NCBI GenBank assembly: GCA_001874255.1
Contig: MPDC01000012.1
Span: 1 to 64,000, forward strand
Length of the DNA stretch: 64,000 bases
DNA from: Alphaproteobacteria bacterium MedPE-SWcel
GTDB lineage: Bacteria; Pseudomonadota; Alphaproteobacteria; Rhodobacterales; Rhodobacteraceae
Direction: 5' to 3'
Of the stretch, positions 24,133 to 60,470 are shown one piece after another. Position 1 is the first letter of the stretch. Each line of letters opens with the position of its first letter. The notes beneath the pieces were generated by a model. It made no database searches. It worked only from the letters and a program-made list of their open reading frames with translations, and had not been told where the DNA came from. The translations under genes and the position numbers were made by a program.

Positions 24133-24339
24133 CAGATTTACATCTATTTTTCCTTAAATTCGTTATCTTTACCAGAAGCCGTCGAAAGCACGGTGGAGCC
24201 TTTGGTATGGAGCCACGAGCTGAAGCCGATTTGCACGCGATGGAATGGGGTCCATCGATCTGCGACAGAGCAGATAGAAGTGCGGGGAAGCGATGCCATC
24301 GGTGTATGGGAGTTGCCTGTTGGGGGAATTGTTTTGAAG

Positions 24340-29264: not shown

Positions 29265-30479
29265 GTGAAAATCGCATATGTGCTGAACACCTATCCGCAA
29301 CCGTCGCAGAGTTTCATTCGGCGCGAAATCCAAGCCCTGGAACGGCGCGGAGTTGAGGTTGTACGCCTGCCAATGCGCCGCTCGGATCAGGCGTTGAGCG
29401 ACCCTGGCGATCAGGCCGAAGCGTCGCATTGTCACTATGTGCTTCGGGCCGGGGCGGCGCGTCTGCTGTGGTCCTTTGTGGCAACCGCAATGCGCGCGCC
29501 GGGCCGCAGCTGGGGCGCGTTCAGGCTGGCGTTGCGATTGGCGCGCGTTGGCGGCAACTGGCTGCGTCCGATGATCTATCTGCTTGAGGCAGCCTATGTC
29601 CTGAATATCGCCCGACAGGAAGGGTGTTCCCATCTGCATGCACATTTCGGGACCAACGCCGCCGCGGTGGCAATGCTGACCGAAGCGCTTGGGGGGCCGG
29701 GCTATAGTTTCACCGCCCATGGCCCGGAGGAGTTTGACGCGCCGCAGAGCCTGTCTCTGGGTCTGAAAGTGGATCGATCCAGTTTTTCCGTCGCCGTTTC
29801 AAGTTTCGGCCGCAGCCAGTTGAGCCGCTGGGCGTCCTTCGGGGCCTGGTCCCGGATCAAGGTAGTCCACTGCGCCATCGAACCCGACCAGTTTCCTGCG
29901 CCCCAGGCCATGCCAGAGGGGGGGCTGAAGCTGGTGGCAATCGGTCGCTTTGTCGAACAGAAAGGCCAGATGGTGTTGCTTCTTGCCCTGGCTGAGGCCC
30001 TCCGTGCCATGCCTGATCTGCACCTGACCCTGGTCGGGGACGGCGAGATGCGCGCCGACCTGGAGGCTGCGATCGCCGCGCATGACATGTCGGCCAATGT
30101 CACCTTGACCGGCTGGCTGCCAGAGGCCGGAGTGCGCGATGCTCTGGCCAGGGCGCATGTGTTGGTCATGCCCTCATTTGCGGAGGGGCTGCCCATGGTG
30201 ATCATGGAGGCGATGGCAGCGGGGCGCCCGGTCCTGGCGACCTATGTGGCGGGAACGCCGGAACTGGTCGTGCCGGACGAGACCGGCTGGCTGGTCCCTG
30301 CGGGCGATGTCACCGGCCTTGCGGACGCTTTGGTGCAAGTGTCGGGGATACCCAGATCGCGTTTGGAGGAGATGGGGGCCGCCGCACGCCGACGGGTGCT
30401 CCTGCGCCATGATGTCGATGCAGAGGCGGCGAAACTGGCCGGTCATTTTGCTGCGGCAATCAAGGATCATGACGGTTGA
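29265..30479 (+). CDS. Glycosyltransferase family 4
   Basis: 404 aa from a GTG start. The N-terminus KIAYVLNTYPQPSQSFI, the middle HLHAHFGTNAAAVAML, and in the C-terminal domain VAIGRFVEQKGQ and EGLPMVIMEAMAAGRPVLAT (the E-x7-E nucleotide-sugar motif) place it with WcaL/EpsF-like GT-B enzymes. It probably adds a sugar to the lipid-linked repeat on the cytoplasmic face. It converges on the minus-strand NRPS/PKS operon, whose last gene ends 10 bp downstream. Confidence 0.92.
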   Translation: MKIAYVLNTYPQPSQSFIRREIQALERRGVEVVRLPMRRSDQALSDPGDQAEASHCHYVLRAGAARLLWSFVATAMRAPGRSWGAFRLALRLARVGGNWLRPMIYLLEAAYVLNIARQEGCSHLHAHFGTNAAAVAMLTEALGGPGYSFTAHGPEEFDAPQSLSLGLKVDRSSFSVAVSSFGRSQLSRWASFGAWSRIKVVHCAIEPDQFPAPQAMPEGGLKLVAIGRFVEQKGQMVLLLALAEALRAMPDLHLTLVGDGEMRADLEAAIAAHDMSANVTLTGWLPEAGVRDALARAHVLVMPSFAEGLPMVIMEAMAAGRPVLATYVAGTPELVVPDETGWLVPAGDVTGLADALVQVSGIPRSRLEEMGAAARRRVLLRHDVDAEAAKLAGHFAAAIKDHDG

Positions 30480-30488
30480 CGCTGCAGG

Positions 30489-31325
30489 TCAACGGCCTCT
30501 TGCCCAGCTGTCGCGGCTGCGAAAGATGGGGCTTTTGACACCCAACGTAACCGCCAGATACACCAGCATCCCCCCCGGAAACCGGAGCGTCAGGGTCATC
30601 AACCGCAACACAGTCAGGCGGCGGCGGTCATCATTTGCAAGCAGCGCCGGAAAGAGCTGGCCGATTTCCGCCACGCCCTGGTTCTGTCGCCTGCGGACGC
30701 GCACCAGGTTCCGGAACCCTTCGGCCATGGGCCAATGGTAGCGGGCCGGCAGCCGCAGGCGCTCGGCGGCCGTGAAGTTCAGGCGGGCAAACGTATCGTC
30801 CGAGATGATATCGGGCCAGCGCCCCCAACGCGCGCGCCCTGCACGCGACATTGCAAAAAGACCAAATCCGGGGGTGCCACTGCGTACAAAAGGCAGCTGC
30901 GACCAGACTCTGGCGTAGGCCCGGGTGCAGGCGCTCCGGGCTCGGGTCACAACGGGCGTACCGCTGGCATAGCGCGCTGAGCCTGTCTCCAGTGCGGCTG
31001 CAATCTGGGGCAGGAGATCCGGTTCCACCACGACATCGGCATCAAGATAGACCAGGATGCTGCCCTGCGCCGCCGCATCGCCTTGATTGAGTGCGCCGGT
31101 TTTGCTGCCCCCGTCGCGTTCCAGCACCCGAAGCTGCCAGTTTTCGGGGCATTTGGCCATCCGGGCTGTGGTGGCTGTGGCGTCGCTGCAGCCGTTGGCC
31201 AATACCAACACTTCGACCTTCATGCCGGGCATCTGCGGCGCGGAGGCAAAGAGTGCAGTGAGGCAAGGGGTGATATATCCCGCTTCATTGTGGGCGGGGA
31301 TCAAGACAGAGACGGCGACGGTCAT
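30489..31325 (-). CDS. Glycosyltransferase family 2 (operon gene 7)
   Basis: 278 aa from the ATG at 31325, which overlaps the stop of the upstream gene by 4 bp; a longer frame to 31397 is unlikely. VAVSVLIPAHNEAGYI at the start, GSKTGALNQGDAAA and the metal-binding YLDADVVV show a GT-A fold of family 2. A C-terminal hydrophobic stretch could anchor it to the membrane. As last gene of the NRPS/PKS operon it may glycosylate the product or build the glycan that carries it. Confidence 0.88.
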   Translation of the reverse strand: MTVAVSVLIPAHNEAGYITPCLTALFASAPQMPGMKVEVLVLANGCSDATATTARMAKCPENWQLRVLERDGGSKTGALNQGDAAAQGSILVYLDADVVVEPDLLPQIAAALETGSARYASGTPVVTRARSACTRAYARVWSQLPFVRSGTPGFGLFAMSRAGRARWGRWPDIISDDTFARLNFTAAERLRLPARYHWPMAEGFRNLVRVRRRQNQGVAEIGQLFPALLANDDRRRLTVLRLMTLTLRFPGGMLVYLAVTLGVKSPIFRSRDSWARGR

Positions 31326-33865
31326 CGGGCCGCTTTCAGTACATCCCAGCGGGGGGAACTGTCCGACAGAAACCGGAGATGACCCCAGCTGCCCCAACGC
31401 CCCGGAGTTGCAATGTCAGAGTATATTCCGAACAATTGGCCGCCCAGTTGTGGCCATGCATTCAGAAGCTGTTGATACAGCTCTGCCATCTCCGGCGTGT
31501 AGTTCAGATGCGTGAAGAAATCCGTCAGTGCCTCGTCTTCGATCACGGAGCCGTGGCCCACAACATGCGTCCCGCCTTCGTACATGATCAGGTCGAGACC
31601 GTGGCGGCTCGCGATGTCGGCATGATACGGCAGAATGCGATTGACCAGATCGTTCAATGTCCCCTCGACATCACCGCCATTCAGCCCGTCGCGCAGCTCG
31701 GCTGCGGCTTGTGCGACGGCGACATCATGGCGGTGCTGGTCGATATATTTCCGGGCCGCCGCGCCCTTCAGCCCTTTGTCCGCGGCGCTTTGCCGGGCAT
31801 GTTCGAGACTGTCGGCGATCCAGGCGCGCACCATGGGGGCCCGGTCCTGCAGGCCGAGAGAGGCCCCGAAATAGCCGGTCACGGCATAGGCGTCGAAGCT
31901 GCGGTATGGCGGCTGTCGCGTCGCATCGCCCGCAGTCCAGAGCGGGGCGGTGAGGACTTGCTCCTCCAGGCCAAGCCAGCCGGTTTGTGTCGACAGGACG
32001 CGAACCAGCCGGTCAGACAGATCCGCATCGGGATTGCCTGCGGCGAAGACCCCGGTCCAGATCCCGGCAATCTCTGTCGCGCGCCCGGCATAATACTGAA
32101 GCCATAGCCCGTCGCTGCCCCAATCGGCCCGCGCCTGTTCATCGGACCAATGGGCCTGCTGAAACTGCCAATTCCAAACCTCGTTCGAGTATTCCACATA
32201 GGTCTTGAGATCGGGGTCCAGGCTTTCGCTGACCAGAGACGCCAGATTGCGTGCGTAGGTGTCGTCGGCCATATGCGGCAGGGTGAACCAGGGATCAGCC
32301 CCGACCCGATTGGCCAGAGCCACCAGAATTTCTGCCGGAACGCCGCTGCGGGTCCAGACGTAGTCATCGAGACGGGGCCGATCTTCCCAGCCGACTTGTG
32401 TGGAATTGTTGGTGTCCATCCAGTCCATGAACCGCAAGGCGGCAAAGCCCTCGATACGGTCCAGCCAGGTCGGGTTGAAAATGGCGCCTTGTTCGACTGC
32501 CTGCAGATCGGCCTCGCGCACGACGGAGATATTGCGGACGTATTCGCCCAGGCTTTCCGGGTCACTGCGCTGGATGCGAATATCCACGGCGCCTTCACCG
32601 GGGGTGAAATCAAAGGAAACCTCACCCTTGCCATAGCGGACATTGCGGGCGCGACCGGCAACTTCGACGATGCCTTCACCTTCGAACCTCAGCACATAGC
32701 GGCCCGCGAGGCTGACGGCTGTGTCCGGCAGATCCGTCAGCAGGACGGTGCCGATAGATCCCAGCTCTGGCGGGATACTGAGGGGCCATCCATTCTGGTC
32801 GAGGTAGCCTGCGGTGCGCAGGTCTTCCTCGGTGACGCCGCCCCATTGCCCGGGCAAATGTCCGATCCATCCGCGGGCCGTTTTGAAATGATCGAGAAAC
32901 GGAGCCTGCGGGCTCCAGTCCCGGACCGGGGCAAGGTTCATCACGATCGGTTGTCGTGTCACAAGGAGGCGGTCGCGGCCGGCATATTCCACGGTGTTCG
33001 GGAATGCCCCATTCAACACGGGCGGGGCCGGATCCATGGGCAGGTCGGCGGGATCCTTCGGCAGGGCCGTCCGCATGACAGAGCTGTTTGCGGCGCCTGC
33101 TGCGATCTCCTGCAATCTGCGGGCCAACTCCGGTGAGGGGGGCGCGTAGGATTGTCCCCATTCGGTTTTCAGGACGCGCGGCAGACCGACGGGCGAGCTG
33201 CCGCTCACAACCCCGAACTGCACCAGGCTGATATAGTAGAACCCGATGTCGTTGGGATGTATATCGTCGGAAAACAGATCGTTGATTGACTGGAGGCCGG
33301 GTACGGTTCCGGCATCGATGGCATCGGCCAACCGCCCCAGAGCCTGACCGACCGGCAACAGGCGAATATCACCGCCGGTCATCGCCTGAGCCTGATCGAC
33401 GATGCCTTGCCAGCGCGGCAGGTCGTCATCCAGTCGCTTGCGCCATGGCACGTGACCGCCTTCGTCAAAGGGAATGTCCGCGTCGCCGCCGCTGAGAAGA
33501 CTGTGCCAGCCTTCCTGCACGTATAGCGTGACGTTCGGGTTGGTCTCGGCCGCCAATTGGTAAAAATCTGCCACGGCGTCTTCGGTGTTGCTCCAGCGCA
33601 GGTGATTGGTGAGCGGCACGGCCTCGGTGACGATCAGCACATCAACCGGCCCCCGCGCAAGACGCGTGCGGGCATTGATGCCCTGGGCCTTGTCGGCGTG
33701 CTCCCAGTTGTAGCGCAGCGGCGCGCCGTTGATGATCTGCGCCTGCACCGTGGGAGGCTTCTCGGATCTTGCTGCGAACAGCTGCTCCAGCATGCGCGGG
33801 TTCTCGGGGCCAATCAGCGAGTGACCGACCATGACAATGGCATTCAGGACGTCGCTCAGGCTCAT
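31322..33865 (-). CDS. SGNH-like domain fused to a glycosidase-like domain (operon gene 6)
   Basis: 847 aa. Residues 1-230 resemble an SGNH/GDSL hydrolase: GHSL with Ser16 replaces the GDSL block, and DDIH gives Asp200 and His203. A beta-rich linker (about 290-450) follows. Residues 460-845 look like a (beta/alpha)8 glycosidase of clan-A style, with YVEYSNEVWN (acid/base candidate Glu562) and MYEGGTH (nucleophile candidate Glu763). No signal peptide is visible, although the preceding gene product has one. It overlaps neighbours by 4 bp on both sides. Removal or transfer of an acyl group and cleavage of a glycan are inferred roles. Confidence 0.7.
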   Translation of the reverse strand: MSLSDVLNAIVMVGHSLIGPENPRMLEQLFAARSEKPPTVQAQIINGAPLRYNWEHADKAQGINARTRLARGPVDVLIVTEAVPLTNHLRWSNTEDAVADFYQLAAETNPNVTLYVQEGWHSLLSGGDADIPFDEGGHVPWRKRLDDDLPRWQGIVDQAQAMTGGDIRLLPVGQALGRLADAIDAGTVPGLQSINDLFSDDIHPNDIGFYYISLVQFGVVSGSSPVGLPRVLKTEWGQSYAPPSPELARRLQEIAAGAANSSVMRTALPKDPADLPMDPAPPVLNGAFPNTVEYAGRDRLLVTRQPIVMNLAPVRDWSPQAPFLDHFKTARGWIGHLPGQWGGVTEEDLRTAGYLDQNGWPLSIPPELGSIGTVLLTDLPDTAVSLAGRYVLRFEGEGIVEVAGRARNVRYGKGEVSFDFTPGEGAVDIRIQRSDPESLGEYVRNISVVREADLQAVEQGAIFNPTWLDRIEGFAALRFMDWMDTNNSTQVGWEDRPRLDDYVWTRSGVPAEILVALANRVGADPWFTLPHMADDTYARNLASLVSESLDPDLKTYVEYSNEVWNWQFQQAHWSDEQARADWGSDGLWLQYYAGRATEIAGIWTGVFAAGNPDADLSDRLVRVLSTQTGWLGLEEQVLTAPLWTAGDATRQPPYRSFDAYAVTGYFGASLGLQDRAPMVRAWIADSLEHARQSAADKGLKGAAARKYIDQHRHDVAVAQAAAELRDGLNGGDVEGTLNDLVNRILPYHADIASRHGLDLIMYEGGTHVVGHGSVIEDEALTDFFTHLNYTPEMAELYQQLLNAWPQLGGQLFGIYSDIATPGRWGSWGHLRFLSDSSPRWDVLKAAR

Positions 33866-34854
33866 GTGGCCCCCTTGGATGGCGCGTCGGTCATCGGGTT
33901 CGCAGGCACCCCAGTGTGCGCCACGTCGGTGACGACCTGCCAGATGATTTCCTGCAATGCCCGGGCCCCGGCCTCAGACAGGGTGGCGAGATGGGTTCCG
34001 TCCGCAAGCGTCACCTGGTGCGGCAACCCAATCGGAGAGTGATGATAGAGAACCGAAAAATGAGTGGCCGCAATGATATACGTTCCCACAGCGCTGAGGT
34101 GGATCGGATCAAGCGCGCCGGTTGCGCTCTGTGCGAACAGATCCTCTCGGTGGGTCAGGCCCGGAATTTCCCCGGCCTCGGCGGCCCGCGTGACGGCGGC
34201 CAGCACCTGCCCACCGGGGATCAGGTAGATGGGTTGACCGCTGGCGGCCTGAATGTCACGCGCCATCAACGCGCCGAGCCACAGGTCATTCAGATCGCTG
34301 TCGATGCGGGACAGCCAGCCCTTCGGGTCGTCGAGCCGGTGCCAGGTCTCATAGAGATACAAGCGCGTTTTGGGGTTGCCGCTGCGGGCCAGTTCGGCCC
34401 AGCGGTGCAGGTAGTCCCGGGCGCCAAAAAACTTGAGTGCGTCGCGCAGTTCGACCATCTCGGTCAGAATGACTGCGTCATAGGCGCCGGATCCGATGGC
34501 TTCCTGCGGGGCCCGCCAGAGCGGCGTATCGTTGACGAGGTCGAAATCGACAATGGTCTCGTCCGGCTCCCAATGGGAGCGAAGCGAGGTGCCGGAGCCA
34601 AGCTGCAGATTATAGGTATGTCCCGCTCCGGCAAACTGGGCCAGAAGATGAGGCATATCCGCGCCCACCAGCGAATGACCCAGGTGGTAGACATGCATTG
34701 GGGCCTGTGGGCGGGACAATGTGGGTGGGACCGGCTGCACCGCGGTGGCGCGGGTCCAAAATGCCCTGCTGCACCAAAAGGCGATGCCGCCGACCGCCCC
34801 AAGCGCCGATAGCGCCAGAAGGGCGCGGCGAGTCAGGCGGGAACTGTGGATCAT
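33862..34854 (-). CDS. SGNH-like hydrolase with signal sequence (operon gene 5)
   Basis: 330 aa. The N-terminus LTRRALLALSALGAVGG has twin arginines before a hydrophobic core, so it may be a Tat or Sec substrate or a signal anchor. GHSL (Ser61) and DPIH (Asp249, His252) give a candidate catalytic triad. It is paralogous to residues 1-230 of the next gene: both have GHSL(V/I)G, a TE-containing strand, and an HSPIGLP / SSPVGLP close. Acyl-esterase or acyltransferase activity on an exported product is the likely class. Start overlaps the phosphopantetheinyl transferase stop by 4 bp. Confidence 0.7.
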   Translation of the reverse strand: MIHSSRLTRRALLALSALGAVGGIAFWCSRAFWTRATAVQPVPPTLSRPQAPMHVYHLGHSLVGADMPHLLAQFAGAGHTYNLQLGSGTSLRSHWEPDETIVDFDLVNDTPLWRAPQEAIGSGAYDAVILTEMVELRDALKFFGARDYLHRWAELARSGNPKTRLYLYETWHRLDDPKGWLSRIDSDLNDLWLGALMARDIQAASGQPIYLIPGGQVLAAVTRAAEAGEIPGLTHREDLFAQSATGALDPIHLSAVGTYIIAATHFSVLYHHSPIGLPHQVTLADGTHLATLSEAGARALQEIIWQVVTDVAHTGVPANPMTDAPSKGAT

Positions 34855-35579
34855 GGGTCCGGCTCATGGTTCGGGATCGTGACGGCTGTGATGATTACCC
34901 CGGCGCCGATGGCAAATCGACCATGAAGTTGATCGCCACGGCGATATGGGGCCTGATCGCCCGTGAATGTTGCCTGAAACGATCTGGTCTCTGCGTCGAT
35001 GCTCAGTTCCAATCCATCAAAACCAAAATATTTGCGGGATCGGGCGTATTGCGCTTTGTAGGCCGCTTCCTTGGCAGAGAACAGCAGCTTGCCCGCTTGC
35101 CCGGGATCGGTTTGGCGGGTCATCCAGTCCTGTTCCTGCGGGCTGGCGATCGAGGGCCAGAGATCGGTGGCCAGAGGAGTATCCTCTTCGACGTCCAGAC
35201 CCAAACCCAGAAACCGATGATCCGGGGCAAGAGCAGCCAGCGCACAGCTGCGGCAGTGGGTGATGCTGCCGACCAAACCGTTTGGCCAAACGGGCGCGCG
35301 TTTCGGGCCGATGAGGATCGGGGCGGGCGTCAGGTTCAACGCGCGCATCGCCCGATGTGCTGCGGCGCGACCGGCGGCGAACTCCCGGCGCCGCTTCTCG
35401 ACGGCATTGGGCGACAGGCAGGCGAATTCCTCGGCGAAGGGGGCGGGAGGGGTGCCTTGCGGGTCTTCTGCTGCAATGGCGACCGCCTCCGGCAAGAGAG
35501 AACGCAGCAGCCGAAGTCGGAGCGTGGTCCTGGTGCTGTCCAGGGTGTGAGGCTGGGCGTGAGGCGGGGGCGAAATCAT
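34851..35579 (-). CDS. 4'-phosphopantetheinyl transferase (Sfp/EntD type, operon gene 4)
   Basis: 242 aa. It transfers phosphopantetheine from CoA to the carrier-protein serines. Motifs in order: GSITHC at 104-109, the metal-binding GLDVE with Asp129 and Glu131, and FSAKEAAYKAQY at 167-178 with Lys170, Glu171 and Lys175. It resembles EntD-like enterobactin synthetase components. Placed between the NRPS and the hydrolase genes with 4-bp overlaps, it presumably activates Ser1468 of the NRPS and Ser1809 of the PKS. Confidence 0.92.
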   Translation of the reverse strand: MISPPPHAQPHTLDSTRTTLRLRLLRSLLPEAVAIAAEDPQGTPPAPFAEEFACLSPNAVEKRRREFAAGRAAAHRAMRALNLTPAPILIGPKRAPVWPNGLVGSITHCRSCALAALAPDHRFLGLGLDVEEDTPLATDLWPSIASPQEQDWMTRQTDPGQAGKLLFSAKEAAYKAQYARSRKYFGFDGLELSIDAETRSFQATFTGDQAPYRRGDQLHGRFAIGAGVIITAVTIPNHEPDP

Positions 35580-38500
35580 CCGTTGCGGGCCTTTCGGGTC
35601 GCCCGCATTGCGCGCCTTTTGGACATGGTGTCCGATCGGTCGATGCCGGGTGGCGTGGATACGGAAGCGGGCCGGGTAACAGGCGCCGTATGCCCGAGCC
35701 GCTGCTCAATATGGCGGGCAAGACCGGCAAGGGTCGGGAAACGGAAGATGTCGGTGATCGACAGCTGCGCTGTCGGCAGCGCCGCCCGGATGTCGCGATG
35801 CGCCTGCACGGCCAGCAGGGAATGGCCGCCGAGCGCAAAGAAATTGTCATCTGGCCGCACATCGGGCATGCCCAGCAGATGTTTCCAGACCTTCGCGATA
35901 TGATGCTCGGCCTCTGATGTCAGGGGCGCAGGTCGCGTCTCGACCTGGTCCCCGTCCGGTACAGGGGCGCGATCGGCATGCGGGGCGGGCAGGGCCTTTC
36001 GGTCGATCTTCTTGTTCGGTGTCAGTGGAAAACTATCCAGCGTCACAATGTGGGAGGGCACCATGGAGGCTGTCAGATGCTGCGCCAGACGCGCTTTTAC
36101 AATGGCCTCCGGTTGGGGCATCGCGGAGGTGACATATCCCACCAAACGCTCATCTGTGCCTATCTTGCGCGGAACGACAACAGCGGCCGTGATACCGTCG
36201 AGCCCGGCGAGGGCGGCCTCGATTTCGCCCAGTTCGATCCGCTGTCCCCGAATTTTGACCTGATGGTCGGTGCGCCCAAGAAACTCCAGCCGCTCGCCCG
36301 TGGTCCATTTGACGAGATCGCCGGTGCGATACATCCGGCTGCCGGGTCGGAAGGGGTCGGCGGGGAAACGCTCGGCGGTCAGTTCGCGGCGGTGCCAATA
36401 GCCCGCCGTGACACCGGCGCCACCAATGCAAAGCTCTCCGGCTGCGCCGATGGGGACCGGGTGATCCTGCGGGTCGAGCACGTAAACGGAGGTATTGGCA
36501 ATCGGCCGTCCGATGGGGGCAACGCCGCCTGGGCGGGTGGTCAGGGTTTCGGTGGTCGACCAGATCGTGGTTTCGGTCGGGCCGTACATATTGTGAATGA
36601 GAGCATCGGTCCGATCCTGCAGCTGTGCCACCAGATCACCGGGCAATGCCTCGCCCCCGACCAGAAGATGCTGAAGCTGGCGTAGAACCGGCCCCGCGTC
36701 CGGGTCGGTTGCAATCATCCGGGCCATGGAGGGCGTGCATTGCATATGAGTGATGCCGTGGCGCACGATCTGTGCTGCGAGCGAGACGTCATCCGCTGCC
36801 AACTCGGGCCGTCGGTTGGTCTCGCGGAGCACCTCTGCCAGAGGGACCAGCCCCGCGAGCACCTTTTGGGTCTCAATGCCGTAGTCGATGAGACAGGCGA
36901 TTTCATCGACGCCGATGCGTTTCAATTGCTCCACCCGGGCGACGGCGTCGTCAACCGTTCCGAACAGGCCGGAGTCCTCGAAGTATCGGTCAAAGGCGAA
37001 ATCAAGGATCGCCTCGAGCTCATCGGGAGAGAGGCTGCCAAGGTCCATTTCGAACGGCGTCTTGGCGCCCTTTGGTTTCTTGAAGGCGGGAAAGGCCCAG
37101 GCGTATTGTTTGATCAGACCGGCAGCGGATCGCAGGTAGTCCTTCATCGGGCCACGTGCAACCTCGCGCGCGGCGGCGCGGGTTTCGGCCAGATAGCTGT
37201 GCAACATCAGCGTGACCGTGAAATCTGCGGGGTCGTGGCCGGCCTCGCGAAGTGCTGCATGATACAGCGCGATCTTGTCACCGACCTCGGGGATGCTCTG
37301 GCCGAGCAGATGGGTCAATACATTGGCCCCGGCAAGTCCAGCCTCGCGCCAGGTGTCGGGGTTGCCCGCGGTGGTCACCCAGACGCTCAGCTCCGGCGAT
37401 ATCGGGCGCGGTTGGGTCACGACCTTGTGCAGGCTGCCGTCCTGACGGGGAAAGGCGACGGCCTCGCCGCGCCAGAGGGACCGGACGGTCTTGATGGCGT
37501 CAAACAGGGCCGGTTTATTGGCGGGTGGGGTATTCTCCGGGCGCAGGATGAAATCGTCGGGTTGCCAGCCGGAGGCAAAACCGATCCCCGTGCGCCCGCC
37601 GGTCAGGTTGTCAATCACGGCCCATTCCTCGGCAATGCGGGCAGGATGATGCAGGGGCGCCACGCAGGAACCGGCTCTCACGGCGATGTTTTGCGTGACA
37701 GCGGCCACCGCCGCGCCTGTCACCGAGGGGTTCGGGTAGGGGCCGCCAAAGGCGTGGAAGTGGCGCTCGGGGGTCCAGACGGCGTTGAACCCGTGGCTGT
37801 CTGCGAATTTGGCCCCTTCCAGCAACAGGTCGTATTTCTTCTCACCGGCTCCGTCGTCATTGCCCCAGTAGTAGAGGTTGAACTCCATTTTGCGGTCACT
37901 GAGCGCCACCGGCCCATTTGCCAGTTGCAGGCGGCTCTCGTCGCTGGACAGCACCAGTTTGAAGCCGCGCGCCAATGTCCAGAACAGTTCCAGTACGGAT
38001 ATATCAAAGGACAGGCTGGTCACCGCCAGCCAACTGTCACCGGGCTTGTGCGGAATGCAGGCATCCATGCCGGTGAAGAAATTGATGACATTCCTGTGGC
38101 GCACCATGACGCCTTTGGGCAGGCCGGTAGAGCCCGAGGTGTAGATCAGATAGGCCAGATCGTCGGACGTGGCGCCGCCCGCGAGGCCCCTATCGGGCTG
38201 AGGGCTGAGGTCGAGCCCCTCCAGATCCACTACTGTCGCTTTGCAGTCCGGCAGCGCGTCCAGCAATGCGGCTTGCGTCAGGATGACGTCGGCCTGACTG
38301 TCGCGAATGAAATGCGCGATCCGGTCAGCTGGGTAGGCCGGGTCGAGCGGAACATAGGCGCCGCCCGCCTTCAGAATTCCAAGTGTCGCGACGACCAGAT
38401 CCAGGGACCGGCGCAGATACACACCCACATGGCTACCGGAGCGCACGCCGCTTTTTTGCAGATGCAGCGCAAGCGCATGGGCCCGCGCATCGAGCTGCGC

Positions 38501-40222: not shown

Positions 40223-41253
40223 TTGGACTCCTCCGATAGCGAAACGGCTTTACCATCCGGGGCCAGCGGCGCGGCGGGCGAGGGAGCCGCCCGTCTCCGC
40301 CCGAGCAGGTGCTTGATGTGGTGGCGCAGAAGGTCGCCGTAGAAATGGGCACTCTCCACTCTGGGTTTGGCCGAGATAGCGCGCCGCAGGCCGTAGATTG
40401 CCCCCCCCGCCAGACGGGCCAGGGTCGCAGCTGCAGCATAGGCCCTGCCATGGGTGGAGGTGAAATAATGCAGGCGGGAATCGAACCAGAACTCCGGTGT
40501 GCGTGGCCAGGTTTTCATCCCCGTCGAGGCGGACCCCACGTGGATGACAGAACTGTCGGGGACGTAAAAACTCTGCCATCCTGCCTTTGCTGCACGATGG
40601 CACAGCTCGGTCTCTTCAAAGTAGAGAAAGAAGGTTTCGTCAAACCCCCCGACCGTTTCGATCACCTCGCGGCGGATCATCAGGCTTGCACCTGCGGTCC
40701 AGTTGACTTGCCGTGCGGCGTCCGGGATCGGCAGCGGGACGACGGCGTGGGACAATAAACGAGAGATCACGCCCGTCTGCGCGGCGCCTTCAAATTCGCT
40801 GGTGATTGTCGGAAACCGGAATAGCGTGCAATGCGGCAGGCCATCCTCGCCCTGAACGAAAGAGCCGACGAGACCTGCTTTGGGATGGTCTAGCAAAAAC
40901 GCCCTCAACGCATGAATGCAGCCCCTTTGGGGGAAGGCGTCCGAATTCAGCAGGTAAAAGAAGTCCGGCACCGCCCCGGTCGAGAGCTTCGCGCCGAAGC
41001 CAATGTTCATACCGGCGCCGAAGCCGCCATTGTGCGGAGCGGCTTCGATCCGCAGCCGTCCAGCGTCGAGCCAGCCCCGCGCCTGCGCAGCGTTCAGAAG
41101 TTTTTCATAGGACCCGTCGCCGGAGCCGTTGTCGATGATCAGCACCTCGCCCGGCAGGTCGGACATGTCCTCAAGCGCGGCGGCGGCCGACCGCAGTGTC
41201 ATCTTTGGCGTGCGGAAATTCAGGATAATGGTGAGAACCGTTTTGTCGCTCAT
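40219..41253 (-). CDS. Glycosyltransferase family 2, rhamnosyltransferase-like (operon gene 2)
   Basis: 344 aa. The start TVLTIILNFRTPKM, GEVLIIDNGSGDGSYEKL, APHNGGFGAGMNIG and the metal-binding region FFYLLNSDAF are typical of the WcaE/rhamnosyltransferase branch of family 2; FFLYFEETELCHRAAKAGW is the usual C-terminal acceptor-side motif. It sits between PKS (3-bp gap) and NRPS (4-bp overlap), which argues that sugar transfer is an integral step in making the product. Confidence 0.92.
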   Translation of the reverse strand: MSDKTVLTIILNFRTPKMTLRSAAAALEDMSDLPGEVLIIDNGSGDGSYEKLLNAAQARGWLDAGRLRIEAAPHNGGFGAGMNIGFGAKLSTGAVPDFFYLLNSDAFPQRGCIHALRAFLLDHPKAGLVGSFVQGEDGLPHCTLFRFPTITSEFEGAAQTGVISRLLSHAVVPLPIPDAARQVNWTAGASLMIRREVIETVGGFDETFFLYFEETELCHRAAKAGWQSFYVPDSSVIHVGSASTGMKTWPRTPEFWFDSRLHYFTSTHGRAYAAAATLARLAGGAIYGLRRAISAKPRVESAHFYGDLLRHHIKHLLGRRRAAPSPAAPLAPDGKAVSLSEESK

Positions 41254-41256
41254 GGA

Positions 41257-44200
41257 TTACTCCGCTGCCTGCTTTGCGGCCGCCGGTGGCACGCGGATGC
41301 CTCGGGCCAGCAGATCCCGGATCGCCTTGCCCAGAACGCTGACGTTGGGCTCCAGGACCATCCCGTCGTGATCGCCCGGCACCTCGATGACCTCCAGTGC
41401 CGGAGCGAACCGGGCCCAGTCGTTGTCAGGATAGACGTATTCTCTTTCCTGGCTGACCCATTTCCCACCCGAGACTTTCCAGTGCCGGTCCAGAACCGGT
41501 CGGTAGAGCGTGACGGGCCCCTCCCATTCTTGCACATCATAGGCCTGAATAGCCTCACGAAAGGCATGTTCGATCTTGTGGTTGTTGAACCCGGCGTTGC
41601 CGCCTGTGTCGTGGCGGGCGGTCTGCCGCTTGCGGATTTCCCATTTGATCCTGTCCTGAACCCATTGGGCAAAGAAGCCCGGACCTTTCTTTCTGATGTC
41701 CGCCAGCTTGATCAACGCCTTGTCCGTGGTGGACAGGGAGGGGCGAACCGGAAGGGGCGTGTCCAGCAGGATCAACGCCTCTACCGCGTCGCCGGAGGCC
41801 GTCATTTGCTGTGCCATTTCCCAGGCGGTGATACCGCCGCCGGAAAATCCGCCAATCAGATAGGGGCCTTCAGGTTGGATGCTCCGGATTTCCGCAATGT
41901 AGTCCCGGGCGGCCTCGTCAATCCGGGTATGCGGAGCATCGGTCCCGATCAACCCCCGCGCCTGGATGCCGAAGACCGGTCGATCCTCGCCAAGGCTCTG
42001 CGCCAAATGTCGCAGGTTGAGAACATTGCCGAACATTCCGGCCACGATAAAGACCGGGCGTGCCTGCGGTGTCTTGCCGGGATGAAGCTTCACCAAATGG
42101 GAAAATGTCTGCGCCGAGGCGGGGCTTCCGGCAACTGCTTCTGCGTCCTGTGTGGTTTCGCTCGGGGAGGGGGCCTCCATCTCGATCCGTCTTGCCAGGG
42201 CCGCGATGGTTGGCGCGTCAAAAAGGACTGACATGGGCCATTCCACACCAAAGCTGCGCTTGATCTGCGCAAAGAGCCGCACCGCCACGAGCGAATGCCC
42301 GCCGAGATCGAAAAAGCTGTCCTCCACGCCCACTTGCGACAGTCCCAGCAGGGTGGCAAAACACTCCGCCAAGGTCTTCTCGACCGAGGAGCGTGGCGCG
42401 ATATAGTCGCTGTCGAGATCCGGGCGGTCAAAGCTCTGCGTGCGGCTGGCGGGGCGGGGTTGGTCCTCCGTCGCTGCCTGCCGGATCAGGGCGGGCAGAT
42501 TGAGCGAGGATACGATGATCTGCGACAGCCCACTGCCCAGAGCACGTTCAAGCGCCGCGCCGCCTTCCTCTGATCGGATGCCGTTCTCGATATTGGACAG
42601 AAGGCGCCGTTCGGCCCGCGACAGGGGCTGCGACATCTCCGCCTCCGAGGTCAGGCCGAGCGCGGCGGCTGTGGTGTCGGTGCGGGCGGGCAGAAGGTCG
42701 AAGCCGCCGCTTAGCTTTTGCATGCGGAAATGGCTGATCTCGACCAGAACCCGACCCGAAGGATCGGTCAAGGTGACGTCAAACAGGGCGGTGTCGCCGG
42801 CAGCCTCCGCATCGGCCAGCCGCACATGGCTGACTATCTCCTGTGGCAAGGGCGACAGCACCCGGAGGGATCCATAGGACACCGGCACCCAAAGTGCGCT
42901 GTTGGCATAGCCGGGAACCAGCGAAAGCGCCCAACCCGTCGCCAGATCCATCAGTCCCGGATGCAGCAGGGTCGCGTCCTGACGGGCGAGGTCCGGCAGG
43001 CAGAGACGCGCCAGCCCTTCGCGATCGCCGAATGCCGTCGATCTCAGCACCTGCCAGCGCGGTCCAAAGCGGAGGTTCGCGTCTTGTGGTGAGGGCAGGG
43101 CCTCTCCGGCCTGTGCGGTTTCGCGAAGGGGGCACCGCGCTTCGATGCTGGCAAGATCCACGAACTCGCGCGTGACGTCGGATGCCAATGCCGTGACCTG
43201 CGCTTCTGCAATCCGGGCCAACCCATCTGGCGTGGCGCCGAAGATCTGTGCGTCAAAGCCCCGGTCGGTGGGGATTGCCCGCATCACCGCGTCTCGCGGG
43301 CTGACTTCGTCAACGACAAAGGGCTGCAAGAAATACAGATCCTGAATTTCGAAAGGCATCGCCATGCCAAGGCTGTCGGCCCCTTCTGCAATCAATTCCA
43401 ATGTGCCGGTGCCGGGCATCACGGCTGTGCCGCCCTCGGTGCGATGGTCGTTCAGCACCCAATCCCCGCAGGCATCGAAGCGGCTTTGAAAGACCGGTAC
43501 ACTGGACCGGTCAAAGCTCTGGCTGTCCCAGAGGGCCGCATCGCAGGGCTGAGGGGCCGTCGGGCGCGTTTCGCCGCGCCGCTCCGCCATGGCCTCGGCG
43601 GCCATCCCGGTATCGGCCCACACGCCCCAGTCAACTGCAATGACGCGGGTTTTTCCGCCGCGCCGTGAATTGGCCCAGGCATTGAGGTATTCATTCGCCG
43701 CCACATAATCGACTTGCCCTGCCGGACGGGTGACGGTCGAGGAGGAGGAAAACAGGACCATCAACTCGAGCGTACCATCGGGGAACACCTGATCAAGCAC
43801 ACGCAGGCCGCTGACTTTCGGGCCGAGCACATCTGCGATTTCGCGTTCGGTTTTCGCAAGAAGTGGCGCATCATCAATCCGGCCCGCGCCGTGAAACACA
43901 CCGGTTACGGGGCCAAAGGCCGCTTGGGCGGCGTCCAGGGCCGCGCGCATGTCCTGCAGGTTGCAGACATCGCCGCTGAGGGTCAGCACCTCTCCCCGCC
44001 CGGTGGCTTGCAGGTGTTCGACTGCCCTGATGCGGCGGGAGGTCCGGTCGTTTGGCCCGTGACGGCGCAAGTAGCGATCCCAGTCGCCCTGTGGGGGCAG
44101 CGGCTCTCGTGACAATAGCGTGATGCGCGCATCAAAGTGGCGCATCAGATGCAGCGCCACCGTCATGCCGATTCCGCCATATCCGCCCGTCACAAAATAG

Positions 44201-47200
44201 TGTCCCCCCCGACGCAGGGGCAGATCATCAGGCAATGGGGGCGAGAGTTTCGCGGGCCGATAGTCCAGTTCGAACCGCGCCGCGCCCCGCCAGGCCGCCG
44301 TCAGATCCGAAGGATCGGCCAGAAGCTCCTCCAGCAGTCGCGAAGTGATATCAACGGTCTTGGTCGGGTGCAGAAGTGCCGAAAATCCGTTGGGCGCGCT
44401 GGGCAGTTCGATGTCGCAGGTTGCAACAGTGACGCCCGGCACTTCCCGGGGCAGGACACCCGCCGGGCCCGCGATCATGGCTTTTTCCGGGTATGGCAGG
44501 GCCTCGCCCCGGATCTGGGCCGCGCCGGTGGTGAAGACGGTGATATGGATCGGCTCTGCCACCTCGGCTGCGGCCAAGGCCTGACCGAGACCCGTCAGCG
44601 ACAGCATCCCCATCTCGATGTTTCGATCAAAAAACGATGACCCCGGACGGAATGTCTCCGCTGCCGTGACAAGCCAGAAATGCGCGATCCTCTGTGGCAG
44701 GAGGTTGGCAGCTGCCAAGTCTGACAGCAAAGCCTCGTAGCCCAAACGCCCCTCTTCCGGCGCGATCTGGTAGAGATCGGGGGCGAGCTGAGCATAGGTG
44801 TCGCCGGGCCTGACCCGGACGATCTGATGTCCGGCGGCCAGCAGACGGTCGGCACAGGCGGAAGCCGGTCCGGTCGGATCCTCAAACACCAGCCATCGTT
44901 TCGGACCCTGGGCCAGCTCGGCCTCAAGCTCGGCACCGCAGGTCGCCGGACGGGGCAGCCAGACGGGACGGTAGCCCCAATCCTCCATGTCATCGTGGCG
45001 CACCGGAAGGTCGCTGTGGGTGTCCGCCGTCGGCCTGCCGGGCTCGATGAAATAGCGTTTGCGTTGAAAGGCATAGGTTGGCAGCGACAGGCGCTGCCGG
45101 TGGGCATCTCCCCAGATTTGTGGCCAGTCGGCCTCTTGTCCGCAGGCCCAGAGCCGCCCGATCACACCAAAGAAATAGGCATCATCCGCAACATCCTGAT
45201 CAGGATGGCGCAGCGAGCTGAGAACCTGTCCCGACGACACGGCAGGCGCCATTTGCGCCAACGAACTGAGCGCCTTGCCGGGGCCGACCTCAAGATAGAT
45301 CCGGTCGGCATTGGCAGAGAGCGTGTCGATACAATCGGCGAACTGCACGGTGTTGCGCAGCTGAGCCACCCAGTACTCGGCGCTGGTTGCCTGTTCAGGG
45401 GTCAGCGGTTCCCCGGTGCGATTGGACATCACGGTAAGGGTCGGCGGCTTGAGCTGCAGCCGGCTCAGGAAGTCGCCATAGGGTGCAAGGATCGGTTCCA
45501 GCATGCGGCTGTGAGCTGCGATATCAATCGGGATCCGCTGGAACTCCACGGACCGGGCGCGCAGGGTGTCTGCCAGGGCCTCCAGCCGGTCCGTGGGACC
45601 GGATACGGCGGTGAGGTCGGCGGCATTGACGCTTGCGATATCCAGATCATCGCCGATCAGCTGTTCCACTTCGGCACGTGAGAGCGAAATCGACAGCATT
45701 CCGCCCGGCTCGATTGTGTCAAACAGCTGCCCGCGCAAATGCACCAGATCGATACAGTCCTCAAATGTCATGACGCCCGCAAGGCAGGCGGCTGTATTCT
45801 CGCCCATGGAGTGCCCGACCATGGCCACAGGTTTCACGCCCCAGCTGATCCACAATTGCGCCAGCGCGTATTCGACGATCATGATCAGAGGCAGTTGCAC
45901 CGAAGGCTGAAGCAGCGCAGCCTCGGCGGCGTCCTTCGCCTCCGGATCCGGCAGCCAGAGTGAGCGGATGTCGAACTCCACCTTGTTTTCAAGGTGATCC
46001 AGCCCCCGGTCCATCCAGTCGGCAAAGACCGGTTCCGTTTCATAGAGGTCGCGCGCCATGCCGGTATATTGGGCGCCGCCGCCGGGGAACATGAAGACGA
46101 CCTCCGGATCTGAACCGAGGTGATCATGAGTGAACACCTGCCGCGGGTTGCCGGCCTCCAACAGGTCAGCGGCTTCGGTTGCGGTTTCCGCCACCACCGT
46201 ACGGCGTTTGGCAAATCCGCGGCGCCCTTCTTTCAGGGTGAAGGCAACATTCGCCAGATCCGCGTCCGGATTTGCCCGAAGGTAGGACACGAGGTTGCGC
46301 GTGTTTTCATCGAGCGCCGCCTTGGTCTGTCCAGACAGGCATATGATCTGAAATGGAAAATCACTTTCTTCCGAGGGGCGGGGCTGGGGCGCTTCTTCCA
46401 GAATTGCATGGGCATTGGTCCCCCCTACGCCGAGGGCGTTGATCCCCGCGCGCCGGGGTCCTTTGTATGAGGTCCAGGGAACCAGCCGGTCATTGACCTG
46501 AAAAGGCGAGGTTTCAAAATCTATGGTCGGGTTGGGGCGTTCAAACCCCAGCGAAGGCGGCAGGGATTGATGAGCAAGGGAAAGAGCGGTCTTGACGAAA
46601 CCGGCCACTCCGGCAGCGGTGTCCAGATGCCCGATATTGGTCTTCACAGAGCCCAGTCGGCAATACCCCCGCGCATCGGTCTGATCCCGGTAGGCCTCTG
46701 TCAGTGCGGCGACCTCGATGGGGTCACCGATATAGGTGCCGGTGCCGTGGCATTCGACATAATCGATGGTGTCTGCGGGGATGCGTGCCGCTGTCAGGGC
46801 CTTGCGCACGGCGCCAGACTGACCATCGACAGAGGGGGCGAGATAGCCGGCCTTGGCGGCGCCATCGTTATTGATTGCCGATCCCTTGAGCACGGCCCAG
46901 ATGTGATCGCCGTCGGCAATCGCATCGCCGAGGCGGCGCAGTGCCACGGCCCCCGCGCCGGACCCAAACACCGTGCCCTGCGCCCTGTGGTCAAAAGCGT
47001 GGCAATGGCCGTCCGGGGACAGGATCTCGTTTTCCTTGTAGAGGTAGCCACGCCCCTGTGGCAGCTCGATGGTGACGCCCCCGGCCAATGCCATCTCGCA
47101 TTCGCCATTGCGCAGCGCTTCTGCTGCGTAGTGGATGGCGACGAGCGATGTGGAGCAGGCGGTCTGCACATTGACCGAGGGGCCCTTCAGATCGAAGACA

Positions 47201-47718
47201 TGGCTGACCCGAGTGGTGAGGAAATCCTTGTCATTGCCGGTATGGCGCAGAAGGAACATGCCGACGTCGTCGACCAGATCCGGATTCGAACATATGTTGA
47301 AATAGAAATAGCTCCCCATACCGCAGCCGGCATAGACGCCCACCTGTCCGTTCAGGCTGTCCGGTGTATGTCCCGCATCCTCCATTGCCGTCCACGCAAC
47401 TTCGAGGAACTTGCGGTGTTGCGGGTCGAGGATGGCTGCTTCTTTCGGCGAGAAGCCAAAGAACTCTGCGTCAAAGCTGTCAAACCCAGGCAGAGGAGCC
47501 GCAGCAGGCACGTAATTTGGCGCCGTCAACAGCTCCGCGGGTTCGCCCGCTTGCAACAGGCCGTCGCGGTCCAGCACCTCTATGGATTCAACACCCTCGC
47601 GCAGGTTGGTCCAGAACTCCTGAACAGAGGCAGCGCCGGGCAAGCTCACAGCCATGCCGACAACCGCAATATCATCCGGGTTGATTGCGGCTTGTTTGTT
47701 CAACGCTTGGTCTCCCAT
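41257..47718 (-). CDS. Type I polyketide synthase, KS-AT-KR-DH-ACP-TE (operon gene 1)
   Basis: 2153 aa, one complete module. KS at 15-443 with Cys188 (TACSTS), His324 (ECHGTGT) and His364 (NIGHLD). AT at about 538-830 with Ser637 in GHSMGE. KR at about 900-1375 with TGGYGGIG at 1177-1184 and Tyr1338/Asn1342. DH at about 1418-1670 with His1425 and Asp1591 in HPGLMD. ACP with Ser1809 in GGHSL. TE at about 1885-2140 with Ser1959 in GGFSGGG and His2117. KR before DH is not the textbook order. A module like this should extend an acyl chain by one malonyl-type unit, reduce and dehydrate it, and release it. It is first in the operon, 223 bp after the upstream membrane-protein gene. Confidence 0.93.
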   Translation of the reverse strand: MGDQALNKQAAINPDDIAVVGMAVSLPGAASVQEFWTNLREGVESIEVLDRDGLLQAGEPAELLTAPNYVPAAAPLPGFDSFDAEFFGFSPKEAAILDPQHRKFLEVAWTAMEDAGHTPDSLNGQVGVYAGCGMGSYFYFNICSNPDLVDDVGMFLLRHTGNDKDFLTTRVSHVFDLKGPSVNVQTACSTSLVAIHYAAEALRNGECEMALAGGVTIELPQGRGYLYKENEILSPDGHCHAFDHRAQGTVFGSGAGAVALRRLGDAIADGDHIWAVLKGSAINNDGAAKAGYLAPSVDGQSGAVRKALTAARIPADTIDYVECHGTGTYIGDPIEVAALTEAYRDQTDARGYCRLGSVKTNIGHLDTAAGVAGFVKTALSLAHQSLPPSLGFERPNPTIDFETSPFQVNDRLVPWTSYKGPRRAGINALGVGGTNAHAILEEAPQPRPSEESDFPFQIICLSGQTKAALDENTRNLVSYLRANPDADLANVAFTLKEGRRGFAKRRTVVAETATEAADLLEAGNPRQVFTHDHLGSDPEVVFMFPGGGAQYTGMARDLYETEPVFADWMDRGLDHLENKVEFDIRSLWLPDPEAKDAAEAALLQPSVQLPLIMIVEYALAQLWISWGVKPVAMVGHSMGENTAACLAGVMTFEDCIDLVHLRGQLFDTIEPGGMLSISLSRAEVEQLIGDDLDIASVNAADLTAVSGPTDRLEALADTLRARSVEFQRIPIDIAAHSRMLEPILAPYGDFLSRLQLKPPTLTVMSNRTGEPLTPEQATSAEYWVAQLRNTVQFADCIDTLSANADRIYLEVGPGKALSSLAQMAPAVSSGQVLSSLRHPDQDVADDAYFFGVIGRLWACGQEADWPQIWGDAHRQRLSLPTYAFQRKRYFIEPGRPTADTHSDLPVRHDDMEDWGYRPVWLPRPATCGAELEAELAQGPKRWLVFEDPTGPASACADRLLAAGHQIVRVRPGDTYAQLAPDLYQIAPEEGRLGYEALLSDLAAANLLPQRIAHFWLVTAAETFRPGSSFFDRNIEMGMLSLTGLGQALAAAEVAEPIHITVFTTGAAQIRGEALPYPEKAMIAGPAGVLPREVPGVTVATCDIELPSAPNGFSALLHPTKTVDITSRLLEELLADPSDLTAAWRGAARFELDYRPAKLSPPLPDDLPLRRGGHYFVTGGYGGIGMTVALHLMRHFDARITLLSREPLPPQGDWDRYLRRHGPNDRTSRRIRAVEHLQATGRGEVLTLSGDVCNLQDMRAALDAAQAAFGPVTGVFHGAGRIDDAPLLAKTEREIADVLGPKVSGLRVLDQVFPDGTLELMVLFSSSSTVTRPAGQVDYVAANEYLNAWANSRRGGKTRVIAVDWGVWADTGMAAEAMAERRGETRPTAPQPCDAALWDSQSFDRSSVPVFQSRFDACGDWVLNDHRTEGGTAVMPGTGTLELIAEGADSLGMAMPFEIQDLYFLQPFVVDEVSPRDAVMRAIPTDRGFDAQIFGATPDGLARIAEAQVTALASDVTREFVDLASIEARCPLRETAQAGEALPSPQDANLRFGPRWQVLRSTAFGDREGLARLCLPDLARQDATLLHPGLMDLATGWALSLVPGYANSALWVPVSYGSLRVLSPLPQEIVSHVRLADAEAAGDTALFDVTLTDPSGRVLVEISHFRMQKLSGGFDLLPARTDTTAAALGLTSEAEMSQPLSRAERRLLSNIENGIRSEEGGAALERALGSGLSQIIVSSLNLPALIRQAATEDQPRPASRTQSFDRPDLDSDYIAPRSSVEKTLAECFATLLGLSQVGVEDSFFDLGGHSLVAVRLFAQIKRSFGVEWPMSVLFDAPTIAALARRIEMEAPSPSETTQDAEAVAGSPASAQTFSHLVKLHPGKTPQARPVFIVAGMFGNVLNLRHLAQSLGEDRPVFGIQARGLIGTDAPHTRIDEAARDYIAEIRSIQPEGPYLIGGFSGGGITAWEMAQQMTASGDAVEALILLDTPLPVRPSLSTTDKALIKLADIRKKGPGFFAQWVQDRIKWEIRKRQTARHDTGGNAGFNNHKIEHAFREAIQAYDVQEWEGPVTLYRPVLDRHWKVSGGKWVSQEREYVYPDNDWARFAPALEVIEVPGDHDGMVLEPNVSVLGKAIRDLLARGIRVPPAAAKQAAE

Positions 47719-49408: not shown

Positions 49409-49526
49409 GTTTTCCCGCCCTATTTCGACCCAAGTTCCACGTTACCGATATACGAAAGAACTGCCACGACGTCTGCTTAGCTTAGTAAGAGACATGCAGC
49501 CTTGCTACAAAGAGATTCGAATCGAT

Positions 49527-59946: not shown

Positions 59947-59985
59947 CCGTCGTCAGCGAATTGGTCCAACACAGGAAAATACCCC

Positions 59986-60345: not shown

Positions 60346-60352
60346 TGTCCCG

Positions 60353-60378
60353 GGCCCGTCGGATTTTGCGGACGGGCC
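60353..60378 (+). other. Hairpin between gcvH and gcvP
   Basis: An 8-bp perfect stem (60353-60360 with 60371-60378) starts 7 bp after the gcvH stop. No T tract follows, so it more likely protects or processes the mRNA than ends transcription. Confidence 0.45.
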
Positions 60379-60470
60379 TCACCTTTGCGAGTGAGACCGG
60401 ACCGGGCGTGCCCGACCCCATTGTCGTGTCTCACATATCCCAAGTCCGACAGACCTGAAGGAGGCAATGG

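What the first reader, a model, noticed from the sequence alone, without database searches (positions are those of the whole stretch)
30489..47718. Seven-gene NRPS/PKS/glycosyltransferase/hydrolase operon embedded in a polysaccharide locus
Seen: seven minus-strand genes (PKS, GT2, NRPS, PPTase, SGNH, SGNH-glycosidase, GT2) with 4-bp overlaps at every junction except a 3-bp gap after the PKS, flanked by Wzx, Wzz, Wzy/WaaL-like and WecG/TagA genes. Known: such overlaps imply cotranslation, and PPTases activate carrier domains. Inference: one pathway makes a small amino-acid/polyketide unit that is glycosylated, or hung on the exported glycan as a non-sugar decoration, with the SGNH and glycosidase proteins editing or transferring it. 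I know of no characterised system with this exact gene set.
Basis: partly seen in the sequence, partly recalled or inferred. Interest (0 to 1): 0.88.

Follow-up and report, generated by a model that had tools for sequence, protein, structure and literature searches.

The report
Assembly-line operon inside polysaccharide export locus
A marine bacterium carries a small-molecule assembly line (glycine-loading NRPS plus one polyketide module) wired into the genes that build and export a cell-surface sugar polymer, and many relatives keep the two together, so the assembly line probably decorates the polymer rather than making a free drug-like compound.

Summary
The seven-gene minus-strand operon is real and annotated essentially as described. 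Its specificity code in the window, DILQLGMIWK, is the one published for glycine domains with such an oxygenase; eight of ten positions are identical in 84 relatives. The PKS is KS-AT-KR-DH-ACP-TE with conserved catalytic residues. PKS-GT2-NRPS is present in 80 of 80 fetched loci, the full seven-gene order in 50. Glycan-assembly genes lie in 77 of 80 loci against 0 of 19 arbitrary 20-kb stretches, and in 16 of 17 new loci picked because the usual flippase was not recorded nearby. The NRPS occurs in 160 of 390 genomes of the order; Hydrogenophaga, Aminobacter and Shinella carry the pair in rearranged glycan loci. Surveys list apparently the same clusters as orphan metabolite clusters. Best reading: N-formyl-(hydroxy)glycine extended by malonate is attached to an exported Wzx/Wzy polysaccharide. 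The gene linkage is shown; attachment, chemistry and function are inferred. Several distant relatives lie outside recognisable glycan loci.

The parts
41257..47718 (-). Type I PKS, 2153 aa: KS-AT-KR-DH-ACP-TE
   Evidence: Pfam/NCBIfam; KS Cys, AT Ser, KR Tyr, DH His/Asp, ACP Ser, TE Ser/Asp/His kept in 79-80 of 80
40219..41253 (-). GT2 glycosyltransferase (GT2a)
   Evidence: PF00535; between PKS and NRPS in 80 of 80 fetched loci
35576..40222 (-). NRPS, 1548 aa: formyltransferase - C-domain remnant - A(Gly) with embedded luciferase-like monooxygenase - PCP
39353..40222 (-). Formyltransferase domain (about residues 1-290)
   Evidence: PF00551 58.4 bits; aligns with LgrA formyltransferase; N87, H89 and D125 each in 81 of 84
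38603..39355 (-). Remnant of a condensation domain (only its C-terminal end and the C-A linker clearly matched)
   Evidence: profile A3 positions 181-261 match McyB and Txo chains, best E 2.3e-13; no Pfam hit at E<=10
36830..37882 (-). Luciferase-like monooxygenase domain TIGR04020, inserted between A motifs a4 and a5
   Evidence: 463.8 bits, residues 781-1131; a4 Asp740 and a5 NMYGPTE from 1211 (motif names recalled)
34851..35579 (-). 4'-phosphopantetheinyl transferase
   Evidence: PF17837, PF01648
33862..34854 (-). SGNH-type protein with N-terminal hydrophobic segment (predicted exported or anchored)
   Evidence: GHSL and DPIH motifs read by eye; N-terminal hydropathy above threshold in the window and in 31 of 55 orthologues; no Pfam hit; not modelled
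31322..33865 (-). SGNH (DUF4886-like) plus clan-A glycoside hydrolase fusion
   Evidence: AlphaFold and VIA-align; E562 and E763 nearly invariant
30489..31325 (-). GT2 glycosyltransferase (GT2b), start at Met25 of the longest ORF
   Evidence: PF00535; start chosen for the 4-bp overlap
29265..30479 (+). GT4 glycosyltransferase, best NCBIfam match EpsE (below cut-off)
27705..29057 (-). Wzx flippase; only PF13440 match in the genome
26362..27657 (+). Wzz chain-length protein
   Evidence: PF02706
25139..26353 (+). ParA-like ATPase, probably CpsD-type
   Evidence: PF10609 below cut-off; a protein in the matching place of a Parasedimentitalea locus is annotated CpsD/CapB
24193..25047 (+). Sugar transferase (Bac_transf, priming; called PssY here)
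   Evidence: PF02397
47942..49408 (-). Wzy/O-antigen-ligase-like membrane protein
   Evidence: PF04932 23.4 bits, below the 31.7 cut-off
49494..50315 (+). WecG/TagA/CpsF glycosyltransferase
   Evidence: PF03808
50317..51306 (-). GT2 glycosyltransferase (GT2c)
   Evidence: PF00535

Best explanation
The operon makes a small glycine-derived acyl unit that becomes part of a Wzx/Wzy-exported polysaccharide. Inferred route: the PPTase primes both carriers; the A domain loads glycine; the formyltransferase makes N-formylglycyl-S-PCP; the embedded monooxygenase hydroxylates its alpha carbon, leaving a carbinolamide or breaking down to a glyoxylyl thioester; the PKS adds at least one malonyl unit, reduces and dehydrates it; the TE releases it or hands it to a sugar; GT2a/GT2b build it into a lipid-linked repeat unit; Wzx flips, Wzy polymerises, Wzz sets length; the SGNH and clan-A glycosidase proteins trim or re-esterify the polymer. 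Shown: gene content, domains, residues, conserved linkage to glycan genes. Inferred: every chemical step, attachment and function.
For: PKS-GT2a-NRPS in 80 of 80 loci, overlapping or within 20 bp in 79 of 80 (PKS/GT2a) and 76 of 80 (GT2a/NRPS). Glycan-assembly gene in 77 of 80 loci, 0 of 19 arbitrary stretches, 19 of 20 loci picked as lacking a recorded Wzx nearby (16 of 17 not already among the 80). NRPS and an SGNH-glycosidase match (E<=1e-20, anywhere in the genome) co-occur in 157 of 390 genomes, NRPS alone in 3, glycosidase alone in 13 (not corrected for phylogeny). Linkage kept in rearranged loci of Hydrogenophaga, Aminobacter, Shinella and on Ruegeria, Paracoccus and Parasedimentitalea plasmids. 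The window's Wzx is the genome's only PF13440 match (other flippase families not searched). Code and a4/a5 insertion match Gly-MOX modules; formyltransferase-Gly loading precedent. The glycosidase domain resembles PslG, recalled as the glycosidase of the Psl locus.
Against: No chemistry or mutant seen. The TE could simply release a free product. No MBOAT or acyltransferase-3 gene among the window locus proteins scanned. No OPX gene in the locus; two lie on other contigs. The long SGNH-glycosidase has no start codon upstream for a signal peptide, so its compartment is unclear. L129-L132 and Aliiroseovarius M344 show no recognised glycan exporter; G198 shows none on its 28-kb contig. At E<=1e-60, 16 of 160 NRPS genomes lack the Wzx relative and 21 of 390 genomes have it without the NRPS.
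Confidence: 0.55

Rival explanations
1. A free secondary metabolite (signal, pigment or antibiotic), perhaps glycosylated by GT2a, whose operon merely sits in the polysaccharide locus.
For: The PKS ends in a TE; related monooxygenase modules make free products; surveys treat such clusters as bioactive-compound clusters; cousins occur without glycan genes.
Against: Linkage to glycan genes persists through several rearranged layouts with 0 of 19 controls; no dedicated exporter or receptor among the window proteins scanned.
Confidence: 0.22
2. The product is a lipid-like or polyene chain made iteratively, serving as glycolipid or as terminal anchor or cap of the glycan rather than a repeat-unit decoration.
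For: Single PKS module with KR before DH, an order I recall from iterative PKSs; DH residues kept; the Hydrogenophaga L076 locus carries a second NRPS that begins with a fatty-acyl-AMP-ligase-like domain.
Against: No ER domain among the Pfam matches; the solved chains scoring highest for KS-AT include CurL and DEBS modules, although iterative Pks13 and mycocerosic acid synthase also match; no lipid-transfer gene recognised.
Confidence: 0.15
3. A metal-binding (siderophore-like) product comparable with other TIGR04020-containing NRPS-PKS siderophores (fabrubactin, recalled).
For: The monooxygenase family name includes Atu3671, which I recall from a siderophore cluster.
Against: No TonB receptor or siderophore exporter among the locus proteins scanned.
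Confidence: 0.05

Closest known systems
MtaG/MelG-type glycine modules of myxothiazol and melithiazol (gene names recalled)
   Same: Monooxygenase inserted between a4 and a5 of a Gly A domain (PMC10204066, passages); code DILQLGMIWK reported for four Gly domains with MOX (PMC12283262, one passage)
   Different: There a terminal step cleaves glycine to leave an amide; here the module starts with a formyltransferase, lacks a complete C domain and has no TE of its own
Formyltransferase-glycine loading modules of conglobatin/oxazolomycin; linear gramicidin LgrA
   Same: Formyltransferase with an A domain and PCP at the start of an assembly line (PMC4504003, passages; LgrA alignment)
   Different: No embedded monooxygenase mentioned in the passages seen; products are free macrodiolides or peptides
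Wzx/Wzy exopolysaccharide loci
   Same: Priming transferase, Wzx, Wzz, Wzy-like, WecG, several GTs
   Different: I know of none with an NRPS-PKS line as a standing component (recall); the listings of paper searches showed none
Orphan hybrid NRPS-like/T1PKS clusters of Rhodobacterales
   Same: Roseibaca: NRPS of 4,527 nt and T1PKS with one locus number between; the hybrid type in 18 of 37 species (PMC10584327, passages); Phaeobacter inhibens Inhi_1972/Inhi_1974 (PMC4062626, passages); LLM-like NRPS genes of strains E-37 and ISM called uncharacterised (PMC9769649, passages); a hybrid cluster on a 225-kb Paracoccus CP157 replicon also found in Arc7-R13 (PMC8273931, passages), probably hits H17 and H4
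   Different: Those papers treat them as metabolite clusters; PMC10584327 has no word beginning with 'polysaccharide' (exopolysaccharide not searched there), PMC8273931 has no 'exopolysaccharide' or 'glycosyltransferase'. That these are the same family is inferred from layout, size or replicon, not tested by sequence except for H4 and H17
Dlt D-alanylation of teichoic acids (recalled)
   Same: Works like it in outline: adenylation domain, carrier, SGNH-type protein (DltD) and a glycan polymer
   Different: No DltB-like MBOAT found among the locus proteins scanned; uses a PKS

Membership tests
MtaG/MelG-type Gly module with embedded monooxygenase | TIGR04020 domain inside the A domain between a4 and a5 | tested here: met
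   residues 781-1131 between Asp740 (a4) and 1211-1217 (a5)
MtaG/MelG-type Gly module with embedded monooxygenase | Gly-MOX specificity code | tested here: met
   DILQLGMIWK in the window, positions placed by eye against the recalled PheA frame; in 84 sequences eight positions identical, 330 I82/V2, 299 L37/M37/F7/Y2/V1; code published
MtaG/MelG-type Gly module with embedded monooxygenase | Terminal module with own TE, chain cleavage to an amide | tested here: not met
   Protein ends after the PCP; TE lies on the PKS; cleavage itself not testable
Formyltransferase initiation module | Formyltransferase with Asn-His-Asp residues before an A-PCP | tested here: met
   N87, H89 and D125 each in 81 of 84 (catalytic roles recalled)
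Formyltransferase initiation module | Formylation of carrier-bound glycine | not testable with these tools
   needs enzyme assay
Wzx/Wzy polysaccharide locus | Priming sugar transferase, Wzx, Wzz and GTs together | tested here: met
Wzx/Wzy polysaccharide locus | Wzy polymerase | tested here: inconclusive
   Wzy_C hit below cut-off
Wzx/Wzy polysaccharide locus | OPX/Wza exporter in the locus | tested here: not met
   PF02563 only on contigs C6 and C34
Siderophore cluster | Receptor or exporter genes | tested here: not met
   none among the main window proteins scanned; other ORFs not scanned
Dlt-type polymer acylation | MBOAT membrane acyltransferase | tested here: not met
   none among window locus proteins scanned
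PslG (GH39) glycosidase of EPS loci | Clan-A barrel with two catalytic Glu | tested here: met
PslG (GH39) glycosidase of EPS loci | Assignment to GH39 rather than another clan-A family | tested here: inconclusive
   heparanase and GH51 structures score higher; no Pfam match
DUF4886/SGNH | SGNH fold | tested here: met

The most novel reading that the evidence does not exclude
A widespread class of bacterial exopolysaccharide whose repeat unit carries a residue built by an NRPS-PKS assembly line, with an N-formyl carbinolamide or a glyoxylyl-derived aldehyde as a reactive group that could cross-link or glue the matrix; a common orphan metabolite cluster of roseobacters would then be a polysaccharide-tailoring system.
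Probability: 0.3. Interest if true: 0.9.

Novelty: new variant of a known kind. Interest (0 to 1): 0.7.

Why it matters
The NRPS occurs in 160 of 390 sampled genomes of the window's order (Rhodobacterales by its named relatives), a group common in the sea. If its product is a polymer substituent, searches for a free compound would miss it, and the surface chemistry of attached marine bacteria would gain a new kind of building block. It gives a direct test: label glycine and look in the polysaccharide, not the supernatant.

Tried and rejected
Rejected: that the seven genes are a fixed unit (50 of 80). Rejected: a complete condensation domain in the NRPS; only the C-terminal end is recognisable. 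Considered and set aside: siderophore and free-antibiotic readings (see rivals). Sequence search of the SGNH-glycosidase against solved structures gave nothing; fold comparison did. Families not listed by the fold comparison are not excluded. Paper searches for a phenotype or an earlier link to polysaccharide showed none in their listings; two searches listed 15 of 73 and 15 of 63 papers, and the library lacks most subscription journals. Phaeobacter rosette polysaccharide (PMC4641667, passages): the term 'gene cluster' does not occur, so no link is claimed. NRPS tree (56 sequences, quick method, SH-aLRT only): Hydrogenophaga form one group (100); distant rows have long branches and are unsure. 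A fold of the NRPS N-terminus was never accepted by the queue.

Caveats on counts: the 80 loci are the best 80 of 432 relatives, hence near kin. The HMMs used to call glycan genes were built from these same loci, so 77 of 80 is partly by construction. The 19 control stretches come from nine G genomes and are 20 kb long, while test loci are mostly 26 kb or more. Three of 80 fail: L045 and L106 are 10-kb contigs; L103 has a mannose-nucleotide gene next to the PKS. The Wzx and NRPS position lists were cut at 150 rows each, and presence/absence lists were typed by hand into; 'not near' therefore includes genomes whose Wzx row was not printed. Fisher values there ignore phylogeny. Rows dropped before the residue counts: two NRPS ORFs over 1700 aa (L061, L089) and the second NRPS of L076, L097 and L101; the 84 include six distant rows (L127-L132). 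In L127-L132 not every ORF was scanned with Pfam, and each stretch is 20 kb.

Annotated plasmid records: 28 matched, 16 with at least 80% cover; ten were opened, three carry no gene table, six of the seven annotated ones lie among glycan-biosynthesis genes, one does not.

Full report
What is there. The minus-strand run 47718-30489 encodes PKS, GT2a, NRPS, PPTase, SGNH, SGNH-glycosidase and GT2b, with a 3-bp gap after the PKS and 4-bp overlaps at the other junctions if GT2b starts at its Met25. It lies between Wzx, GT4, Wzz, a ParA-like ATPase and a priming sugar transferase on one side and a weakly matched Wzy-like protein, WecG/TagA and a further GT2 on the other. The genome has one such NRPS (the next match scores 65.6 bits), one PF13440 flippase, which is the window's, three Bac_transf genes and two OPX genes, neither in this locus.

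The enzymes. The NRPS reads formyltransferase, remnant of a condensation domain, adenylation domain split by a TIGR04020 luciferase-like monooxygenase (463.8 bits), PCP. The insertion lies between a4 (Asp740) and a5 (from 1211), as described for myxothiazol and melithiazol modules, where glycine is hydroxylated at its alpha carbon (PMC10204066, passages). The ten code positions, which I placed by eye using the recalled PheA frame, read DILQLGMIWK; in 84 sequences eight are identical, position 330 is I in 82 and V in 2, and position 299 varies. PMC12283262 (one passage) reports that four glycine A domains with a MOX domain all had DILQLGMIWK. The formyltransferase aligns with that of LgrA, and formyltransferase-glycine starters are proposed for conglobatin (PMC4504003, passages). 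The PKS is KS-AT-KR-DH-ACP-TE; the KS Cys, AT Ser, KR Tyr, DH His and Asp, ACP Ser and TE Ser/Asp/His are kept in 79-80 of 80. So the line looks active and, if it runs once, would give a four-carbon acyl chain ending in a formylated, possibly hydroxylated nitrogen. The number of extensions is not known.

How widespread and how linked. 160 of 390 genomes of the order carry the NRPS at E<=1e-100. In 80 loci from genome contigs, PKS, GT2a and NRPS occur in all 80, PPTase in 76, and the full order in 50. At least one of six glycan-assembly families lies in 77 of 80, against 0 of 19 arbitrary 20-kb stretches. Of 150 listed NRPS genes, 108 have a listed Wzx relative within 30 kb; from the 42 others I opened 20, and 19 have other glycan-assembly genes around, 16 of 17 if the three contigs already among the 80 are left out. 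NRPS and an SGNH-glycosidase match are both present in 157 of 390 genomes, NRPS alone in 3, glycosidase alone in 13; NRPS and Wzx relative both in 144, NRPS alone in 16, Wzx alone in 21. Layouts differ: a second Rhodobacterales layout puts Wzx upstream of the PKS and Wzz downstream; in two Hydrogenophaga loci scanned (L076, L101) an XrtA-system ATPase match, below its curated cut-off, sits next to the PKS; Aminobacter and Shinella have PKS and NRPS divergent, with flippase, export protein, PPTase and GTs; Ruegeria conchae has dTDP-rhamnose genes alongside. A unit that stays with glycan genes through such rearrangement is more than a passenger.

Results against. Of six relatives outside the family found among 398 phylum-wide genomes, only two (L127, L128) lie in clear glycan loci; L129 has sugar-type epimerase and aminotransferase genes but no exporter recognised; L130, L131 and L132 showed none, L132 lacks the PKS, and L131 has only an SGNH-like neighbour (20-kb stretches, not every ORF scanned). 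Aliiroseovarius M344 has a 42%-identical NRPS beside a different NRPS-PKS and no glycan genes in the table. Thus the assembly-line type is older or broader than the glycan link, and the link holds for the close family.

What is known. Surveys list apparently the same clusters as uncharacterised metabolite clusters (PMC10584327, PMC4062626, PMC9769649, PMC8273931; passages only). The listings of paper searches showed no paper linking them to polysaccharide. I therefore file it as a new variant: known enzyme kinds in a combination not seen in print by these searches.

Verdict. Observation confirmed. Interpretation partly supported: link to the glycan pathway strong (I put it near 0.85), attachment of the product to the polymer likely but unproven (about 0.55-0.6), chemistry of the unit speculative.

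Noticed in passing
58822-63320: Glycine cleavage genes (GCV_T and GDC-P) lie about 11 kb from the operon, whose NRPS should use glycine and a formyl-folate; probably chance, conservation of the neighbourhood not tested.
   Followed up: no
20666-23743: Hybrid histidine kinase with dCache (below cut-off), PAS and receiver domains directly before the sugar transferase; possible regulator of the locus.
   Followed up: no
L139, L140: Two genomes of one genus (G162, G359) keep an SGNH-glycosidase relative next to a PPTase but show no NRPS or PKS in the 20 kb fetched; in G359 near a glucokinase and AraC regulators.
   Followed up: partly
L076:18158-24085, L097:18840-24851, L101:18843-24848: Hydrogenophaga loci carry a second NRPS; in L076, the only one scanned, it begins with a fatty-acyl-AMP-ligase-like domain.
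   Followed up: partly
L200:26311-30225: Ruegeria SCSIO 43209 plasmid has UbiA, GtrA, FAD oxidoreductase and SDR genes in a row, resembling a polyprenyl-phospho-arabinose pathway (recalled), close to the PKS-GT2-NRPS set.
   Followed up: no
L204: Aliiroseovarius M344 plasmid: related NRPS beside a 9.2-kb NRPS/PKS gene, with nos genes and XrtD, no glycan locus; may make a free metabolite.
   Followed up: no
33865 (upstream frame): The long SGNH-glycosidase has an open frame upstream but no start codon giving a signal peptide, unlike some short forms; its compartment is a puzzle.
   Followed up: partly
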